A stretch of DNA of 64,000 bases from assembly GCA_003210055.1 (NCBI GenBank), contig QCNS01000007.1, forward strand, positions 1 to 64,000, read 5' to 3'. The stretch comes from SAR116 cluster bacterium AG-426-I14 (lineage in GTDB: Bacteria > Pseudomonadota > Alphaproteobacteria > Puniceispirillales > Marisalimonadaceae). Both the position numbers and the translations under genes were made by a program. The notes under the pieces are model-generated. The model ran no database searches and was not told the origin of the DNA. It saw only the letters and a list, made by a program, of their open reading frames with translations. Below, piece after piece: positions 341 through 14,469 of this stretch (position 1 is the stretch's first letter; every line of letters begins with the position of its first letter).

Positions 341-955
341 TTATTTCTTTCTTCTTTTTTCTATTTCAGCTTCTAAATCAGCCATAGCTTTATCAGCATC
401 TTTTTGTGTGCTTAAGATTTCATCTTGCTTGATTTGATTTAATAATTCTTGGTTCTTTTCACCAATAGGATACTCTAATAAGGTAAAATATCTGTATCTA
501 CCTTTTTCGTTTATAACCTTTGATTCGGTGACCTTATAGCCAACCAAGGTAGTTTCAGGTATAAGATTTCTTGAAATTATTTCTAATCTTTTCTTTACCT
601 GTTCATTGTTTTGAGTACCAGTTGTTTTTGTATAATTATCTATTTTAGACATAATTGTACTTTTAATTGAATCTACAAGAAGTGCTTTTCCATTCATTAT
701 CGATCTGGTTCTGGAGAGATTTAAGTCAGAAGAAATACCGATTCCACATGAGTATCTTGCATCTTCATTTCCAGGCAATTTTGTACACCAATTTGGCATT
801 TCAGCAATAGTCTTATTAACATTATCATTTTGTACTTTAATAGCTTTTTCTTTCTCTTTTAATTTTGCTTCAGGAGAACCTGGTTTTGATGAACATGAAG
901 ATAATAACAAAATTGTTAAAAAAACTCCTAAACATAAAAAATTATTTTTTTTCAT
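341..955 (-). CDS. LPP20-like lipoprotein
   Basis: About 204 residues from ATG at 955. The N-terminus is a lipoprotein signal peptide with lipobox LLSSC (Cys21), so the mature protein should be membrane anchored. The body has a MPNWCTKLP segment, then a YSCGIGISSD glycine-rich stretch followed by a helix, the pattern of the LPP20 family; the C-terminus is a charged helix rich in Lys/Glu. An in-frame ATG at 1000 would put 15 hydrophilic residues before the signal and lies inside the upstream gene, so 955 is preferred. The start follows the stop of the DUF4384-like gene by two bases, so it is the third gene of the 3286-to-341 minus operon. Function unknown. Confidence 0.7.
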   Translation of the reverse strand: MKKNNFLCLGVFLTILLLSSCSSKPGSPEAKLKEKEKAIKVQNDNVNKTIAEMPNWCTKLPGNEDARYSCGIGISSDLNLSRTRSIMNGKALLVDSIKSTIMSKIDNYTKTTGTQNNEQVKKRLEIISRNLIPETTLVGYKVTESKVINEKGRYRYFTLLEYPIGEKNQELLNQIKQDEILSTQKDADKAMADLEAEIEKRRKK

Positions 956-957
956 TT

Positions 958-1740
958 TTAATCCCTCACTATTGAATAACCTAACCTTTGCATTTGCCAT
1001 TGAGACCTACCTAGGTTTTGTAATCTTTTATATAGTTCTATTATATTTTCTTCTTCCAGTATGTCTATTTTTACTTTGGATGCAATAATAACTATAAATT
1101 CTTGAGTAATATTTTTATAAAAGTTCTGAGGAAAGTTAACTTTTAGATTATAATGAGAGTTAGGAATTGAAAATTTATTTTTAGTAAAGTTATTTTTATC
1201 ACTTTCGTTTGGGTATAGCTTATAATATACATTTTTTTTAATGTCAGGATACCATCCTAACACAGTTATATAAGAATTTTTGTTAACCTCTCCACTGATT
1301 TGAATATTATCATTACTATATAGAATTTTTTTGTTATCTAATTTTACACTCAGGGCATAATTGCTATCTGCCTTTTGATTATATTGCTCAACATTTGCAT
1401 TGATATTGATTATACACTCATCTTCTATGGATTCTTTATTAATAGTTTCTGTATAATCAAACTCCTTAATAAAACCTCCTTCTACATAATCAAATGTACT
1501 TTGATAAAATGTACAATCAGTTTTATCTTTGATTTCAGTACAAATATCTAATTGATCAGATTTAAACTTTTGAAAACCATTTTTTGACAATGCATTTCTT
1601 TTAGCAAGCATTAATGCTCTATCACATGCTTCACCTTTAGATATATTCCTAGATATAAAATATCTACCTTCTGCTTTTGTCCAGTCTGCATAAACGTTAG
1701 TAGATAGTAAAAATAAGAATATTAATTTATTGACTAACAA
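958..1740 (-). CDS. Exported DUF4384-like protein
   Basis: About 260 residues. From a TTG at 1740 it begins with a clean signal peptide (MLVNKLIFLFLLSTNVYA, then DW). ATGs at 1788 or 1785 are alternatives but would overlap the upstream gene by about 60 bases and put extra residues ahead of the hydrophobic core; which is used is uncertain. Residues ~140-260 form a beta-rich domain with ISGEVNKNSYITVLGW and a closing segment LGRSQWQMQRLGYSI, typical of DUF4384. Such domains occur in exported proteins found with caspases and trypsin-like proteases, as here. Translationally coupled to the TPR-protease gene (14 bp overlap) and to the LPP20 gene. Biochemical role unknown. Confidence 0.65.
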   Translation of the reverse strand: MLVNKLIFLFLLSTNVYADWTKAEGRYFISRNISKGEACDRALMLAKRNALSKNGFQKFKSDQLDICTEIKDKTDCTFYQSTFDYVEGGFIKEFDYTETINKESIEDECIININANVEQYNQKADSNYALSVKLDNKKILYSNDNIQISGEVNKNSYITVLGWYPDIKKNVYYKLYPNESDKNNFTKNKFSIPNSHYNLKVNFPQNFYKNITQEFIVIIASKVKIDILEEENIIELYKRLQNLGRSQWQMQRLGYSIVRD

Positions 1741-3286
1741 TAAAAACGACTGAAGGACGCATATATTTATAAATTTCTGAGGCATCATATTTTTGAACTG
1801 AATTTGATTTATTATTTATTGGTTCATTTAAAAAACTTAAAAGAACATCTCCTGAAATTGCTAAGTTTACATCTTGTACAAGAATTCCTTTTTGTTTAAG
1901 TAAGAATTTTTTATCTAACTTTGCCAGTGAAACTCCGACAACAAGACCGTTTTGATTAAAAACAGGTCCCCCAGAATTACCTACATTTAAAGTTGCAGTC
2001 ATTTGGAACTCACCAGGCAACTCTCCAAAGCCAGAATTCTTACTTATTATGCCTTGTGTAATAGATGGATTATATCTTCCTAAAATTGAAGATATAGGAT
2101 ATCCCATGATAAAAATTTTTTCACCAACCTTAGGTTTAGCTATCTCTTTTGTAGTTAGACTTTCATTTTTTGGAAATGGATTATTTAAGACTAGTATTGC
2201 TAAATCTAAATTTTTATTTTTAGGATACCTAATTTTATTAACTTTTCTTGTTTTACCAAGTCCATTTCTAACTACAATATTTTTAGATTTTTTAATTACA
2301 TGTTTGTTTGTAACTATCCACTTACCCTGATTAATAATAAACCCACTTCCTGTAAAAACCTCTTTGTTACTATCAATTATAATTTTTTCAGGTTCACTGT
2401 CAGGTTTTAAAACCCTTCTATGAACTTTTTTAATTTTTGTTTTAGTAACATCAATTAAAACGTTGTTTTTATTGTTTTTTTTATTTACCTTATCTACTTT
2501 TTTTTCTTCAATATTAAGTTTTTTGTTTATATCTTTTGTAGTTAGCCATGACAAAATTTGTTCTGATTTAAACGAGTTTCCAGTATCTTTAAACATTCTT
2601 GATGATTTTGTTCTTAGTTTAATTGCTTCGTCAATATTACCTTCAATCCAATTAATTTTACCCAATAAATCAATAATCGAGGCATTTGGTTTTTTATCAA
2701 ACAAAGCATTCATAATAATTTTTTTTGCTTTAGAGGGATTTCCATATCTCAGTTTACTATTTGCATAAACTCTTATGGCATAAAGATTTTTGTTTGCTGA
2801 ATCGGTAATTAGAGCTTGTTTATAATACTTTTCTGCTACATCAGGTTGTCCATAATCGTCAAAAATTAACCCTAATGCAAGTTTGCCATCGACAGAATCA
2901 GGATTTAGTTTTATTGCTTTTAAAGCATAATTATGAGCATCATTTAAATTACCCATTTTTATAGATGATAAAGCTAAGCCAGCATATCCTTTATCTGCAA
3001 AAGCAACTGAGTTAAAAGTTGCTTTTTCAAAATAATTAAACGCTTTAACTGGTTTTTCTAAAGCAAGATATATTTTGCCCACCAACACTTGTGCATCAGC
3101 TGATAAATGTCTATTAATATTTGATTTTATTTTAAGCTGTTTGAATGCTTCATCGACATTTTCTTCTTCAATAAGATCATTTATAACTTTATAATCATTT
3201 TTATTTATTCCATAACTAGGAGTATGTATGATAAAAAATATTACAGTTAAAATTGTTGATATAAATTTAAAGATAGTCTTATGCAT
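1727..3286 (-). CDS. Exported TPR and trypsin-like (S1) serine protease
   Basis: 519 residues. A signal peptide (residues 1-26) is followed by TPR-type helical repeats (~30-240, with GLALSSIKMGNLNDAHNYALKA and similar units), a Lys-rich linker, and a chymotrypsin-fold protease domain (~300-490). The triad is intact: His329 in VTNKHV, Asp361 in LDLAIL, Ser438 in GNSGGPV. There is no PDZ domain, so it is not a standard DegP. The C-terminus ends SVVFIVSQ. First gene of a three-gene minus operon. Its ATG shares the palindrome ATGCAT with the start of the divergent lipoprotein gene. TPRs suggest it binds partner proteins; the neighbouring caspase lipoprotein is a candidate (inference). Confidence 0.85.
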   Translation of the reverse strand: MHKTIFKFISTILTVIFFIIHTPSYGINKNDYKVINDLIEEENVDEAFKQLKIKSNINRHLSADAQVLVGKIYLALEKPVKAFNYFEKATFNSVAFADKGYAGLALSSIKMGNLNDAHNYALKAIKLNPDSVDGKLALGLIFDDYGQPDVAEKYYKQALITDSANKNLYAIRVYANSKLRYGNPSKAKKIIMNALFDKKPNASIIDLLGKINWIEGNIDEAIKLRTKSSRMFKDTGNSFKSEQILSWLTTKDINKKLNIEEKKVDKVNKKNNKNNVLIDVTKTKIKKVHRRVLKPDSEPEKIIIDSNKEVFTGSGFIINQGKWIVTNKHVIKKSKNIVVRNGLGKTRKVNKIRYPKNKNLDLAILVLNNPFPKNESLTTKEIAKPKVGEKIFIMGYPISSILGRYNPSITQGIISKNSGFGELPGEFQMTATLNVGNSGGPVFNQNGLVVGVSLAKLDKKFLLKQKGILVQDVNLAISGDVLLSFLNEPINNKSNSVQKYDASEIYKYMRPSVVFIVSQ

Positions 3287-4555
3287 TTTTTTATTAAAAA
3301 TTTAATTCATTTAATATTACTTATTTTAATATCTAGTTGTCAAACACCACGTTATCAAAAAGTTACAAAAGTTACAGATCCTTCAAAGTTTTTGCCTGAA
3401 GTCCAATATTTTCTGAGTGAAAATTTTAATAAAAAAGATATTAAGTGTATTTTAATTGGTAAAATTAATAATGTATCGAAAAATACAAAGTTTAAAAATT
3501 TGAATAAAAAAAAGATCATTAGGCAAACAATTTACGGTCACTTATCACCCAAAAATTATAGAGACATAGAATTACATAGAATTAAAAGTTTTTTAAATAA
3601 AAAAAAGTCATTTAAATATATTTTAAATGAGCTCAATTGCGATGCAATCTTAGAAGGTGAAATAATAAGATTTGATAGTAATTTTTTTATAGCTTTTTCT
3701 TCTACAAATGTAGGTTTAAAACTTAGATTGAAGGGCAAAGATGATAAAGTTTATTGGGAGGCAAGTCATATCGCATCTTCAAAAGCAGGAACTTTCCCCC
3801 TTTCACCAATAGCAATAGCTTCTGGGTTATATTCTGCATCTATAAATAAGCATGAAGAAACGGCGCTTCAAATGGTAGATACTGTAGTAAGAAGAATTAT
3901 GAAAACATTACCTAATGTAAGTGATCTTAATAATAACGAACAAATAATGTTTTCTACTTTTACTAATCATAAAAAACATGAATTTGTAAATTCTAACTTT
4001 AATAAACCATTTGAATTATTTGCCAATGGTCAGTTTGATAAAGCTATTAATTTAATTAATCAATATCATAAAAAAAATGAATTTGATGAGAAGCTTATGT
4101 TTTTAAAAGGTAGGTCATATTTACTTCTAAATAACAATGAAGCTGCATCTCAGACATTTTTGGATGTTTTGGCTATTAGAGAAAAAAGTGAGTACTTTAA
4201 TGGTCTTGGCTACTCATATATGAAAATGAATAAGTCAAATAAAGCGATAGCAGCATACAATAAAGCAATTAATTTAGATAATAAAAATAGCTTTGCATAT
4301 TTTAATGCGGGTCTATTATTTGAGAAAGGAAAACTTTATTCTGAAGCTGTACGATATTATTATTCTGCGGGTACAAGCAGTATTTTAAAAAAAGATTATC
4401 AAAGAGTTTTTAATGTTAAAATTGCTTTAAAAAGATTAGCAAAATTTGATAAAAATGCTAATTCAAAAATTAAGAAAATAGATATGTTTCTGGATCAATT
4501 TTTATTTAATGACGAAAAACAATATCAAATTAAAAAGGTAAAAGGTAATTATTAA
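3281..4555 (+). CDS. TPR lipoprotein with GNA1162/DUF799-like domain
   Basis: 424 residues. Signal peptide with lipobox LISSC (Cys20). Residues ~35-200 form an alpha/beta domain (NCDAILEGEI, then VGLKLRLKG and VYWEASHIAS) reminiscent of GNA1162/DUF799 or CsgG-like outer-membrane lipoproteins; this match is from memory and only moderate. Residues ~230-390 carry TPR repeats such as GLGYSYMKMNKSNKAIAAYNKAI. No other start codon fits: an in-frame stop lies at 3257-3259 and no start codon follows before the signal peptide, so ATG 3281 is well fixed and overlaps the divergent protease start by six bases. Six bases separate its stop from the MORN-caspase gene, implying co-transcription. Confidence 0.7.
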   Translation: MHFFIKNLIHLILLILISSCQTPRYQKVTKVTDPSKFLPEVQYFLSENFNKKDIKCILIGKINNVSKNTKFKNLNKKKIIRQTIYGHLSPKNYRDIELHRIKSFLNKKKSFKYILNELNCDAILEGEIIRFDSNFFIAFSSTNVGLKLRLKGKDDKVYWEASHIASSKAGTFPLSPIAIASGLYSASINKHEETALQMVDTVVRRIMKTLPNVSDLNNNEQIMFSTFTNHKKHEFVNSNFNKPFELFANGQFDKAINLINQYHKKNEFDEKLMFLKGRSYLLLNNNEAASQTFLDVLAIREKSEYFNGLGYSYMKMNKSNKAIAAYNKAINLDNKNSFAYFNAGLLFEKGKLYSEAVRYYYSAGTSSILKKDYQRVFNVKIALKRLAKFDKNANSKIKKIDMFLDQFLFNDEKQYQIKKVKGNY

Positions 4556-4561
4556 CTTGAT

Positions 4562-7114
4562 ATGAGTAATTATAGAATATCATATTTAAATTTATTTTTT
4601 TTTATTTTTATCTTTGGATGTGTTTCTTCAAATCCCGACTTAAAAACTTTGTCTTCTGCATCAAAAACTTTTACTTGTGAGTTGATTTCATATGGTAGTG
4701 AAGAATGCAAAATTAAAAGTAAAAGTGATAAAGAAATATGTGAAAACTTCATATGTATACAAAAGGGTGTTTGTGTTGGAAATCTGTTATCTTATCAAGA
4801 TGAAATAACCTCAAGGAACATAAATTGTAACTTTGATAAAAAATATAAAAAATTTCAAGGTAATTTATATTTAAAACAAAAAGAATTTTTATTTGATAAA
4901 AATATCAGTAAAAATAAATCTTCTAAGAAAATTTATTGTAAGGGTCAAAATAAATCTCTTTGGACTAATTGCTTTGCAAAACTTGAATATAAAAATGGTG
5001 ATAAATACATTGGCGATTGGATTGAAGGAAAAATGCATGGTTATGGTAGTTTAAATTTTAAAAATGGAGATAAATATAGAGGGTTTTATAAAAATAATAA
5101 AAGAGATGGGAAAGGTATCTATAAATGGTCTAATGGAGATAGCTATGTTGGTTCCTGGAAAGAGGGTAAAGAGAGTGGGTTGGGGACATATACATGGTCT
5201 AATGGAAATAAATATATAGGAAATCATAAAAATGGAAAAGAAGAAGGTTATGGTGAATATATATACAAAAATGGTAAAAAGAAAAAAGGTTATTGGAAGG
5301 AAGGTAAATTTACTTCTACTTTAAGTTCGAAAGTTCAAGATAATAATCACTCTCTTCGTGCTTTTGGTTCGGTTTTATATTCTGACTTCAATTTGTGTTC
5401 AACTATAGGAAAAAAATTAAAACATAATTGTTTTGGTAAAAAAATATTTAAAAATGGAATTTATACAGGTGAGTTTAAAAACAATAAGCTAAATGGATTA
5501 GGTAAGTTTGAAACTTATAAAAAAGATATATATCTCGGAGAATTTAAAAATAATAAATATTCAGGCAAGGGTAAGTATTTTTATAATTCGGGACATAGGT
5601 TTAATGGTAACTATTTAGAAGGAAAAAGAGAAGGTTATGGTCATATAAAATATAAAGATGGAAGTGAGTATTTTGGAAATTATGTTAATGGAGAAAAAAG
5701 TGGATATGGAAAGTACTATTTTTCAAATGGGAATTCATATAAAGGATATTTCAAAAAAGGAAAATATAATGGAAAAGGAGCTTTTTTCTTCACAGATAAA
5801 AGTAAATATATTGGTATGTTTAAAGATAATAAATATCATGGTTTAGGAACTATGACTCTCAAAAATGGAAAAAGTTTTAGTGGTAAATGGGCGGATAATA
5901 AATTTTTAGGCTATACAGAACAAAAATCCTTTAAAAAAAATCAGCCTGAAATATCTCTTTCAGAGTTAGAAAAAGAAAGAAAAAAAATAATATTTTTAGA
6001 AAATGAATTAGAGAGATTAAAAAAAGAAAAAAAACAAAAAGATAGAGAGCTAGAATTAGATAAAACAAAACCATCTATATTAATTAATTTCAAAAAAGTT
6101 ACAGGTAAGCAAGGTGTTTTAAAAGGAAAAATAACGGATAGTTCTGGTATTGCAGAGCTATCTATTAATAATAAAAAAATTCATTTTAATGAAAACGGTG
6201 AATTTATTTTTTCTACATTCGTTCCTTTTGATGGCATAGATATACATATTGAAGCAGTAGATATGGCAGGAATAAGTAATTCAAAAATAATAAATTTTAA
6301 GAGAAAAATTAAAACAGCAACTAATCAATTTTCATTTGAAAGATTAAATCCAATATCAAAAATGGTTGAAAAAAATAAAAATGCAGTTGCAATAATCATT
6401 GGAATTCAAAATTATGAAAGTATAACTATTCCTGCTATTTATGCTGATAAAGATGCTCTGATGTTTAAAGATTATGCAACAGAAATTTTAGGTATTGAAG
6501 AAAGAAATATAAAATATTTTATTAATGAAAAAGCAGAATATGCAGAAATTTTATTATCAGTAAAGAGTTGGTTAAGAAGAGTTTCAAAACCTAATGAAAC
6601 AGAGCTTTATCTATTCTTTGCTGGTCATGGTTTGGCGTCTGATAATGGAAAAAACCTCTACTTACTTCCTTACGATGGTAGAAAAAGATTGCTTGAAAAA
6701 ACTGCAATATTAAAAGAAGAACTTTTCGAAGACATATTATTATCAAAACCTCGTTTTGTTAATGTTTTTTTAGATACATGTTATAGTGGTACTACTAGAA
6801 GTTCAGAATCTTTGATTAATTCAAGGCCAGTTACAATTGTACCAAAGGTTTTAGACTTTCCGGATAATTTCACAATATTTGTTGCTGCACGAGGTGATGA
6901 GACTAGCAAGCCACTAGAAGAGGCTCAGCACGGTATTTTTAGTTATTTTTTAATGAAAGGAATGGAAGGTTATGCTGACAAAAATGATGATAAAAAAATT
7001 ACAGCTGGTGAATTACATCAATATATTAAAAATAATGTAATGCAACATTCTTCTGGGTCACAAAATCCCGAGTTTTTTGGAGATACAAAAAAAGTATTAA
7101 TCAAGTTTAATTAA
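4562..7114 (+). CDS. MORN-repeat lipoprotein with caspase-like (C14) protease domain
   Basis: 850 residues. Lipobox IFIFGC (Cys20) predicts a lipidated envelope protein. Two MORN arrays follow: about 4-5 repeats at ~146-258 and seven at ~298-450, of the type GDKYIGDWIEGKMHGYG. A charged coiled coil (~460-502), a beta-rich Ig-like segment (~505-590) and a caspase-fold domain (~605-850) complete it. The catalytic dyad is present: His689 in FAGHG and Cys740 in LDTCYSG. MORN repeats usually bind membranes or proteins; the bacterial C14 family cleaves after Arg or Lys. Second gene of the plus arm of the divergent locus. Substrate unknown; the trypsin-TPR protein and the lipoproteins next door are candidates. 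Confidence 0.88.
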   Translation: MSNYRISYLNLFFFIFIFGCVSSNPDLKTLSSASKTFTCELISYGSEECKIKSKSDKEICENFICIQKGVCVGNLLSYQDEITSRNINCNFDKKYKKFQGNLYLKQKEFLFDKNISKNKSSKKIYCKGQNKSLWTNCFAKLEYKNGDKYIGDWIEGKMHGYGSLNFKNGDKYRGFYKNNKRDGKGIYKWSNGDSYVGSWKEGKESGLGTYTWSNGNKYIGNHKNGKEEGYGEYIYKNGKKKKGYWKEGKFTSTLSSKVQDNNHSLRAFGSVLYSDFNLCSTIGKKLKHNCFGKKIFKNGIYTGEFKNNKLNGLGKFETYKKDIYLGEFKNNKYSGKGKYFYNSGHRFNGNYLEGKREGYGHIKYKDGSEYFGNYVNGEKSGYGKYYFSNGNSYKGYFKKGKYNGKGAFFFTDKSKYIGMFKDNKYHGLGTMTLKNGKSFSGKWADNKFLGYTEQKSFKKNQPEISLSELEKERKKIIFLENELERLKKEKKQKDRELELDKTKPSILINFKKVTGKQGVLKGKITDSSGIAELSINNKKIHFNENGEFIFSTFVPFDGIDIHIEAVDMAGISNSKIINFKRKIKTATNQFSFERLNPISKMVEKNKNAVAIIIGIQNYESITIPAIYADKDALMFKDYATEILGIEERNIKYFINEKAEYAEILLSVKSWLRRVSKPNETELYLFFAGHGLASDNGKNLYLLPYDGRKRLLEKTAILKEELFEDILLSKPRFVNVFLDTCYSGTTRSSESLINSRPVTIVPKVLDFPDNFTIFVAARGDETSKPLEEAQHGIFSYFLMKGMEGYADKNDDKKITAGELHQYIKNNVMQHSSGSQNPEFFGDTKKVLIKFN

Positions 7115-13347: not shown

Positions 13348-14469
13348 ATGAGTAAATTTATATACTTTTTTTTCATCATTCTCTTTATTAATTCTTTTAA
13401 TAATGTTTTTGCTAATGAATGTGAAAGTAAAAAAGAATATAAAAAATCAGAAGATTGTTATTGGTTAAAAAGAGTTGTCGGTATTAGAACACCTGTGATG
13501 ATAGCAAGTGGCACGTTGATAGATAATAATTTTATAATAACCAATAGGCATGTTGCAGAGGATCATCCTCATGTTATGGTAAGATTTTTTAATGGAGAGA
13601 TTAGAAAAGCTTATCCTTTACCTAATAACTATCCTGTTGATTTGACAATACTTTCATTAAATAAAACTTTTATTCCTAAGAAAATAAATTTTACAATCAG
13701 TTCTAAGCCTCCTTTAAAATTAAAAGTTGTAGGTTTTGATCAAGGTAGAAGAAAGAGTAGAATTTATAAACAAGGTAAAGTTATTCATTTTCCTGATTTA
13801 AATAAATTCCCATTTTCAAGAATTCACACCAATGCTCAAAGTTTGCCGGGAAATAGTGGGGGAGCAGTAATTGATGAAAGATTTGAAATTATTGGATTTC
13901 TTGCTTCAGGAGATGGAAATTATAATGAAGTTGTCCCCTTACAAACTGTAACAAATGTTATTCAAAAAACAGATATAAATGTCAAAGAGGAATTTATTGA
14001 TTGGGGAAGAAATATTAGAATTTGCGCTGATACACTGGAATTTTCCTATAAGTTTCAAAAAAAACCACCACAAAACCTAATCAATAAAATTGAAAAATTT
14101 TGTTCTTTGTCTAAAAACAAGCAATTATTTGATCAAGTTGGTCAGACTTTCGGTCGTTGGGGGCTTTTTGACAAATCAATTCTCTTTTTGAAAAAAAGTT
14201 TAAATTTGGATCCTTATAGTCCCAATACTCTTTTATCATTAGCTATTAGCTTTCATATTAAAAGGGATATAAAATCTGAGGAACCAATAATTCTCAAACT
14301 ATTAAAGCTCATTCCTGAAGATCCACAGGTTTTAAGATTAGGCGTTCAAGTTGCGGGATATCTAAAAAATAAAAAATTAGGTAAAAAAGTTTTAAAACTT
14401 ATGAAAACTCATAATCCATCAGCCCATCCATTGGCAGAAAACTATCTAAAAAACGCATTTAAAGAATAA
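13348..14469 (+). CDS. Exported trypsin-like serine protease with TPR-like C-terminus
   Basis: 373 residues. Signal peptide ending near FNNVFA, then a compact S1 protease domain (~35-210) with His68 (NRHVAED), Asp98 (PVDLTIL) and Ser170 (GNSGGAV). Residues ~240-373 look like TPR or Sel1-type helices (GLFDKSILFLKKSLNLDP). The gene inverts the domain order of the 1727-3286 protease (TPR before protease there, after it here). An AAGGA ribosome site is 8 bases before the ATG. It is convergent with the subtilisin-like gene (one base between stops), so two exported serine proteases end back to back. Confidence 0.83.
   Translation: MSKFIYFFFIILFINSFNNVFANECESKKEYKKSEDCYWLKRVVGIRTPVMIASGTLIDNNFIITNRHVAEDHPHVMVRFFNGEIRKAYPLPNNYPVDLTILSLNKTFIPKKINFTISSKPPLKLKVVGFDQGRRKSRIYKQGKVIHFPDLNKFPFSRIHTNAQSLPGNSGGAVIDERFEIIGFLASGDGNYNEVVPLQTVTNVIQKTDINVKEEFIDWGRNIRICADTLEFSYKFQKKPPQNLINKIEKFCSLSKNKQLFDQVGQTFGRWGLFDKSILFLKKSLNLDPYSPNTLLSLAISFHIKRDIKSEEPIILKLLKLIPEDPQVLRLGVQVAGYLKNKKLGKKVLKLMKTHNPSAHPLAENYLKNAFKE

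What the first reader, a model, noticed from the sequence alone, without database searches (positions are those of the whole stretch)
341..7114. Divergent five-gene locus joining caspase, trypsin, MORN, TPR and lipoprotein modules
A MORN-repeat lipoprotein with an intact caspase dyad (His689, Cys740), a TPR lipoprotein, a TPR-trypsin protease with intact triad, a DUF4384-like protein and an LPP20-like lipoprotein lie in two arms from one point. All five carry signal peptides or lipoboxes, so they should meet in the envelope. The caspase and trypsin classes are coupled in one unit with likely scaffolding domains, which suggests a proteolytic signalling or envelope-quality system. This is the best candidate for an undescribed system here.
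Basis: partly seen in the sequence, partly recalled or inferred. Interest (0 to 1): 0.8.

Follow-up and report, generated by a model that had tools for sequence, protein, structure and literature searches.

The report
Exported caspase islands with swappable heads
Some ocean-surface bacteria (SAR116, SAR11 and a few others) carry a conserved set of envelope proteins next to one or several secreted caspase-like proteases that keep the same cutting end but have very different front ends, which looks like a mobile detect-and-cut system that I found no description of and whose function is untested.

Summary
All five genes are at the stated places, the caspase dyad (His689/Cys740) and trypsin triad are intact, and all five have export signals. 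The window is a SAR116-cluster (Puniceispirillales) genome.

The unit S1-TPR > DUF4384 > LPP20, with a PelC/GNA1162-like TPR lipoprotein and a caspase, recurs in SAR116, SAR11, Litoricola (a gammaproteobacterium) and other marine alphaproteobacteria. All 18 order-level genomes with the DUF4384 gene also carry the caspase (18/18, against 6 of 63 without it).

The finding is larger than described. The MORN caspase is one member of a polymorphic family: a constant C-terminus (Ig-like domain, caspase, EF-hand-type loop; catalytic residues invariant in 64/64) behind variable N-termini (MORN, TPR, Sel1, PDZ, a whole solute-binding protein, many unknown). Neighbouring copies can share 93-94% of the C-terminus while their N-termini are unrelated. 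One four-gene array lies between two tRNA-Gly copies beside an integrase.

Most likely an accessory envelope system in which variable heads sense or bait something and an activated caspase cuts. Activation by the trypsin partner or by calcium, and a defence role, are inference. The envelope quality-control reading remains a serious rival.

The parts
341..1000 (-). LPP20-like lipoprotein; probable start Met at 955, lipobox LSSC
   Evidence: homologues beside DUF4384 in all but one of 33 DUF4384-bearing contigs
958..1788 (-). Exported DUF4384-like protein with conserved Cys (C83, C92, C125 invariant, C55 at least 90%)
   Evidence: model pLDDT 80, no clear solved-structure relative
1727..3286 (-). 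Exported TPR + trypsin-like (S1, HtrA-type without PDZ) protease; triad H329/D361/S438; overlaps the next gene by 62 nt
3281..3286 (.). Shared palindrome ATGCAT: the two divergent arms start on overlapping ATG codons, no intergenic space
3281..4555 (+). Lipoprotein: PelC/GNA1162-like domain (about aa 25-210) followed by TPR repeats (about aa 242-410)
4562..7114 (+). Lipoprotein: MORN repeats, Ig-like domain, C14 caspase
4958..5971 (+). MORN repeat region (about aa 133-470), the variable N-terminal module of this copy
6059..6301 (+). Ig-like domain (Glucodextran_B/Big_6-like), start of the constant region
6386..7081 (+). Peptidase C14 domain
6626..6628 (+). Catalytic His689 codon
   Evidence: invariant in 64/64
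6779..6781 (+). Catalytic Cys740 codon, in D738-T-C740-Y-S-G
   Evidence: invariant in 64/64
6977..7012 (+). EF-hand-type loop D806-x-N808-x-D810-x-K-I-T-x-x-E817 inside the caspase C-terminal part
   Evidence: D806, D810, E817 invariant and N808 at least 90% in 64 proteins

Best explanation
This is one copy of an accessory, horizontally spread envelope protease system of marine picoplankton. Shown by sequence: a fixed core (S1-TPR protease > DUF4384 > LPP20, usually overlapping genes in that order, often with a PelC/GNA1162-like TPR lipoprotein) stands next to one to five exported caspases. The caspases have a constant C-terminus (Ig-like domain, C14 caspase, EF-hand-type loop) and interchangeable N-termini, which here is MORN. 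Inferred: the variable N-termini are sensors or baits that bind something foreign or damaged in the periplasm or outer membrane. The PelC-like TPR lipoprotein and LPP20/DUF4384 proteins form an outer-membrane platform that clusters them. The S1 protease cleaves, or clustering with Ca2+ activates, the caspase, which then cuts envelope proteins, either destroying the intruder (phage, contact toxin, predator) or sacrificing the cell. The P1 preference is probably Arg/Lys, because the caspase has the metacaspase-type Asp two residues before the catalytic Cys (recalled from metacaspase structures, not tested). Confidence refers to the whole statement, including the conflict/defence role; the anatomy alone is about 0.9.
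For: Conserved unit in the order and across SAR116, SAR11, Litoricola and other alphaproteobacteria. DUF4384/caspase co-occurrence 18/18 against 6/63 (Fisher 3e-13; relatedness not corrected). Catalytic dyad and EF-type loop invariant in 64 caspases, trypsin triad in 9/9. 31 N-terminal clusters among 87, including MORN, TPR, Sel1, PDZ and a complete SBP_bac_5 domain. Paralogues with C-termini 93-94% identical and unrelated N-termini, with a sharp DNA boundary. Fusions S1-DUF4384 and DUF4384 N-domain-C14. Island features: two tRNA-Gly copies bracketing four caspases next to a Phage_integrase gene in L047; tRNA within 500 bp of a caspase in 10 of 51 loci against 4.0 expected; syntenic site without the locus in genus g3 relatives. 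Precedents: trypsin-activated pro-enzymes and Ig-like caspases in antiphage systems (PMC12799240); trypsin + pseudo-caspase + DUF4384 in one alphaproteobacterial protein (PMC6426788).
Against: No functional data. No PADLOC defence model matches closely. All parts are exported, whereas the bacterial caspase defence systems I know of act in the cytosol. No nuclease or other obvious killing effector was recognised in the unit. No substrate or activation site was identified. The SAR116 MORN-caspase next to the core is kept in several related genomes, so heads are not hypervariable everywhere. 24 of 81 genomes have the caspase and 6 of these lack a detected DUF4384 gene (possibly incomplete genomes). 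The window's own copy has no tRNA or recognised integrase nearby (window start is the contig end).
Confidence: 0.4

Rival explanations
1. Envelope quality control or remodelling: the N-termini are adaptors that bring the caspase to particular endogenous envelope substrates or sites, with the S1-TPR protease and TPR lipoprotein working like DegP and NlpI-Prc.
For: All parts exported; S1 domain most similar to HtrA/DegP; the TPR part of the lipoprotein matches NlpI among others in solved structures; some N-termini are ordinary periplasmic modules (SBP, SurA_N, PDZ, TPR).
Against: Very patchy (18 of 81 in the order, 3 of 385 and 2 of 399 in class and phylum samples including the window's own genome); tandem polymorphic copies and island features are unusual for house-keeping.
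Confidence: 0.3
2. Offensive or extracellular weapon: the caspases are displayed or released against competitors or grazers, with variable N-termini as targeting heads.
For: Exported lipoproteins with a constant enzymatic part and variable heads; polymorphism between neighbours.
Against: No immunity gene or recognised secretion apparatus noticed in the unit; the core proteins look like fixed periplasmic/outer-membrane parts.
Confidence: 0.12
3. Stress-triggered programmed cell death as proposed for cyanobacterial metacaspases, without a recognition function of the N-termini.
For: Metacaspase-type dyad and EF-type loop invariant; metacaspases are widely proposed to act in cell death (PMC3501461).
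Against: Does not explain the variable N-termini or the conserved exported partners.
Confidence: 0.1
4. Chance neighbours with no joint function.
For: Each domain type occurs widely; LPP20-like relatives without a DUF4384 relative exist in 2 of 81 genomes.
Against: Ordered co-occurrence in several classes and domain fusions.
Confidence: 0.02

Closest known systems
Bacterial metacaspases/orthocaspases (Peptidase C14; PMC3501461, PMC6426788)
   Same: Caspase domain with His-Cys dyad, many accessory domains, sometimes several per operon, EF-hand and N-terminal Ig-like domains reported in some
   Different: No described set with a fixed exported core (S1-TPR, DUF4384, LPP20, PelC-like TPR) and a constant Ig-caspase C-terminus behind swapped N-termini in the papers searched
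Alphaproteobacterial QC pseudo-orthocaspases: trypsin + p20 + DUF4384 in one protein (PMC6426788)
   Same: Same three domain types are coupled
   Different: There in one polypeptide with a changed caspase dyad; here separate genes with an intact dyad
Canu caspase-nuclease antiphage loci (PMC12799240)
   Same: Caspase with Ig-like fold, TPR partners, variable loci, proteolytic activation logic
   Different: No MBL-type nuclease seen here; Ig-like domain is N-terminal to the caspase; proteins are exported
Diversifying conflict systems with acquired protein modules and proteolytic cascades (PMC7159879)
   Same: Constant catalytic or core parts with highly variable modules, trypsin and caspase peptidases
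   Different: Those described are NTP-dependent and mostly cytosolic; no NTPase here
PelC / GNA1162 outer-membrane lipoproteins
   Same: Predicted fold of the N-terminal domain of 3281-4555
   Different: About 10-19% identity, fused to TPR, no Pel or CsgG genes noticed beside it
tRNA-linked islands of pelagic bacteria such as tycheposons (PMC10872708)
   Same: tRNA plus tyrosine recombinase with cargo genes, as at L047
   Different: Best shown here for one locus; the window copy has neither nearby

Membership tests
Peptidase C14 (PF00656) | Profile match over cut-off and His-Cys dyad | tested here: met
   50.6 bits against 21.4; dyad invariant in 64/64
Metacaspase sensu stricto | p20 plus p10, acidic S1 pocket, Ca2+ dependence | tested here: inconclusive
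   Weak profile match to solved metacaspases over p20 only (E 9e-5); Asp before the catalytic Cys present; activity and Ca2+ not testable here
MORN repeat proteins | Repeated MORN motif over cut-off | tested here: met
   123 bits, 10 stretches
HtrA/DegP proteases | Trypsin_2 domain plus PDZ | tested here: not met
   Trypsin_2 82.5 bits, no PDZ; DegP models far below their cut-offs
DUF4384 (PF14326) | Score over Pfam gathering cut-off | tested here: not met
   19.1 against 27 bits; resemblance only
LPP20 (PF02169) | Score over Pfam gathering cut-off | tested here: not met
   15.5 against 25.9 bits; resemblance only
PelC/GNA1162-type lipoproteins | Fold of the lipoprotein domain | tested here: inconclusive
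   Foldseek E 2e-6 to 1e-5 with PelC and GNA1162, TM-score to target 0.57-0.70, but the model has mean pLDDT 73; ring formation not testable
Canu antiphage system | Adjacent MBL-fold pro-nuclease | tested here: not met
   None among the five genes; flanks examined only in part
Known defence systems in PADLOC | Close match to a PADLOC protein model | tested here: not met
   Only generic protease/caspase-domain matches
Known defence systems in PADLOC | Protection against phage | not testable with these tools
   needs experiment
tRNA-linked mobile island | tRNA site, recombinase, duplicated tRNA end | tested here: inconclusive
   Met at L047; not at the window, which has no tRNA and begins at a contig end

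The most novel reading that the evidence does not exclude
A polymorphic, periplasmic caspase immune system: exported caspases with recombining bait domains, activated at an outer-membrane PelC-like platform by a partner trypsin and Ca2+, spread by islands among the most abundant surface-ocean bacteria. It would be an extracytoplasmic counterpart of inflammasome-type caspase immunity.
Probability: 0.25. Interest if true: 0.92.

Novelty: new variant of a known kind. Interest (0 to 1): 0.73.

Why it matters
Bacterial caspases with known defence roles act inside the cell. A conserved, exported caspase-plus-trypsin unit with swappable recognition heads in streamlined ocean bacteria would place caspase-type proteolysis in the cell envelope, and would give a concrete, testable role for the scattered 'metacaspases' of marine bacteria. 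SAR11 genomes are small, so keeping proteins of about 600-1300 residues of this kind implies strong selection (inference). The constant-end, variable-head design also offers a direct way to find what is recognised.

Tried and rejected
(1) Chance clustering: rejected by co-occurrence and fusions. (2) Phage cargo: a scan of IMG/VR gave only four distant caspases at 23-27% identity. (3) Integron-type cassettes in L047: the intergenic repeats were found, among the loci fetched, only in that array and match no Rfam family; read as tandem duplication with swapped middles. attC structure was not formally tested. (4) DUF4384 fold search: one Foldseek match at E 1.5e-4 (GbpA) with TM-score 0.3, not informative. 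(5) Promoter scan between the arms: no more matches than shuffles. (7) Rfam and tRNA scans of the window: nothing. (8) PDB sequence search for LPP20 and DUF4384: nothing credible. (9) Three requests failed for trivial reasons of region length or stop codons and were redone.
Full report
OBSERVATION. The five genes are present exactly as described. Pfam gives Trypsin_2 and TPR for 1727-3286, TPR for 3281-4555, MORN and Peptidase_C14 for 4562-7114, and sub-threshold DUF4384 and LPP20 matches for 958-1788 and 341-1000. The genes of the minus arm overlap (62 and 43 nt as called), so S1 > DUF4384 > LPP20 is probably one translationally coupled operon (inference). The two arms share their start: both ATG codons lie in the palindrome ATGCAT at 3281-3286, and in most relatives with this arrangement and intact genes the gap is also near zero.

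WHOSE GENOME. The window is contig C7 of a 1.88 Mb, 78% complete genome.

CO-OCCURRENCE. Each protein was searched in 81 genomes of the order. The S1-TPR, PelC-TPR, DUF4384 and LPP20 homologues fall in the same few genomes and lie side by side. The five-part divergent unit recurs with the same order in G002, G017, G025, G034 and G045. In G010 the gene after the TPR lipoprotein is a caspase without MORN; in G022 it is a MORN-trypsin and the caspase sits on the other flank; in G056 (another family) the caspase converges on the TPR lipoprotein. Smaller sets (caspase + DUF4384 + LPP20) are in G006, G023, G037, G063 and G065; in G018 the trypsin and DUF4384 are one protein. DUF4384 and the caspase co-occur in 18 genomes, 6 have the caspase only, none DUF4384 only, 57 neither (Fisher 3e-13; this ignores relatedness). 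In even samples of the class and phylum the DUF4384 family is rare (3 of 385 and 2 of 399, window genome included).

WIDER SPREAD. A scan of 84,980 species genomes with the Ig-caspase alignment returned SAR116, many Pelagibacteraceae (SAR11), Litoricola and a few other marine bacteria. Annotation of these contigs finds DUF4384 in 33 of 73, nearly always with LPP20 (32) and in 24 also with S1-TPR; many contigs are cut short. In SAR11 the usual order is caspase(s) facing LPP20-DUF4384-S1, and the LPP20 protein has a long, charged, coiled-coil-like N-terminus and no lipobox in the four read. Litoricola locus L148 lies on a 696 kb contig, so contamination is unlikely.

A POLYMORPHIC CASPASE FAMILY. 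In 64 full-length caspases the dyad (His689, Cys740) and the acidic positions of an EF-hand-type loop (D806, D810, E817; N808 at least 90%) are invariant. An Ig-like domain precedes the caspase (Glucodextran_B in 34 of 64, Big_6 in one examined). The N-termini differ: MORN in 11 of 64, and TPR, Sel1, PDZ, SurA_N, one complete solute-binding protein (L155, 272 bits), many without a Pfam match. A BLAST clustering gives 31 groups among 87 N-termini. In L103 two neighbours are 94% identical over the constant region (89% at DNA level over 1094 nt) and dissimilar before it apart from the signal peptide; in L047 two are 93% identical with unrelated N-termini. So constant ends are duplicated or homogenised while heads are exchanged.

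MOBILITY. In L047 four caspases lie between two tRNA-Gly copies 13.2 kb apart (90 nt at 96%), with a Phage_integrase gene next to the first. L127 also has an integrase gene beside tRNA-Gly. In four SAR11 loci a caspase starts 126-137 bp from tRNA-Ser. Overall 10 of 51 loci have a tRNA within 500 bp of a caspase against 4.0 expected (p 0.001; SAR11 loci share one site, so they are not independent). At the window, genus g3 relatives keep the surrounding gene order (uracil-DNA glycosylase, then a hydrolase and a YeiH-like gene) without the caspase unit, so it is accessory.

OTHER PARTS. The first domain of 3281-4555 has a PelC/GNA1162-like predicted fold (Foldseek E 2e-6 to 1e-5). PelC was solved as a dodecamer, which would make a platform at the membrane (inference; oligomerisation not tested). 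The DUF4384 protein has conserved cysteines, as expected in the oxidising periplasm. All families score as exported far above the flanking-gene background.

MECHANISM. Shown by sequence: shared compartment, intact active sites, fixed partners, swapped heads, fusions, patchiness and island features. Inferred: heads recognise something; S1 and/or Ca2+ activates; the caspase cuts. Trypsin-activated pro-enzymes in bacterial immunity and Ig-containing caspases (canu) are published (PMC12799240), and trypsin + pseudo-caspase + DUF4384 occur in one alphaproteobacterial protein (PMC6426788). These make a proteolytic cascade plausible, not proven. Envelope quality control with adaptor heads remains a serious rival.

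KNOWN OR NEW. Searches for caspase with LPP20/DUF4384, metacaspase with SAR11/SAR116, and MORN or trypsin with caspase homologues found no description of this unit; the library holds open-access papers only. I class it as a new variant of a known kind (multi-domain bacterial caspase loci). If the immune reading is right it would be categorically new.

Noticed in passing
L046 5757-12539 (G002, AG-426-B08): The same-genus copy has DUF4384, S1-TPR and PelC-TPR genes each split into two reading frames although 87-94% identical to the window: decay or single-cell sequencing errors.
   Followed up: no
L059 14986-17865; L060 6403-8289; L084, L086, L087, L100; G000:C11 8557-11160 (L043): MORN repeats are also fused to trypsin-like proteases in SAR116, in one genome at the very place of the MORN-caspase.
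   Followed up: partly
L047 4990-18291 (G065): Four caspases between two tRNA-Gly(gcc) copies with a tyrosine recombinase gene; the caspase genes are separated by repeated leader and intergenic segments.
   Followed up: partly
L155 7946-11044: A SAR11 protein joins a complete family 5 solute-binding protein to the Ig-caspase.
   Followed up: no
L144 2186-4201; L042 6009-8291: Single ORFs fusing the DUF4384-type N-domain to a caspase, and a trypsin to DUF4384.
   Followed up: partly
L164: A contig labelled Crocinitomicaceae RS467 has the same genes and lengths as SAR11 locus L167; probably a mis-binned SAR11 contig.
   Followed up: no
window 13348-14469: A second trypsin-like domain protein (373 aa) encoded 6 kb downstream, present also in G002.
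   Followed up: no
window 3281-3286: Two divergent genes start on one shared ATGCAT palindrome, leaving no intergenic promoter region.
   Followed up: partly
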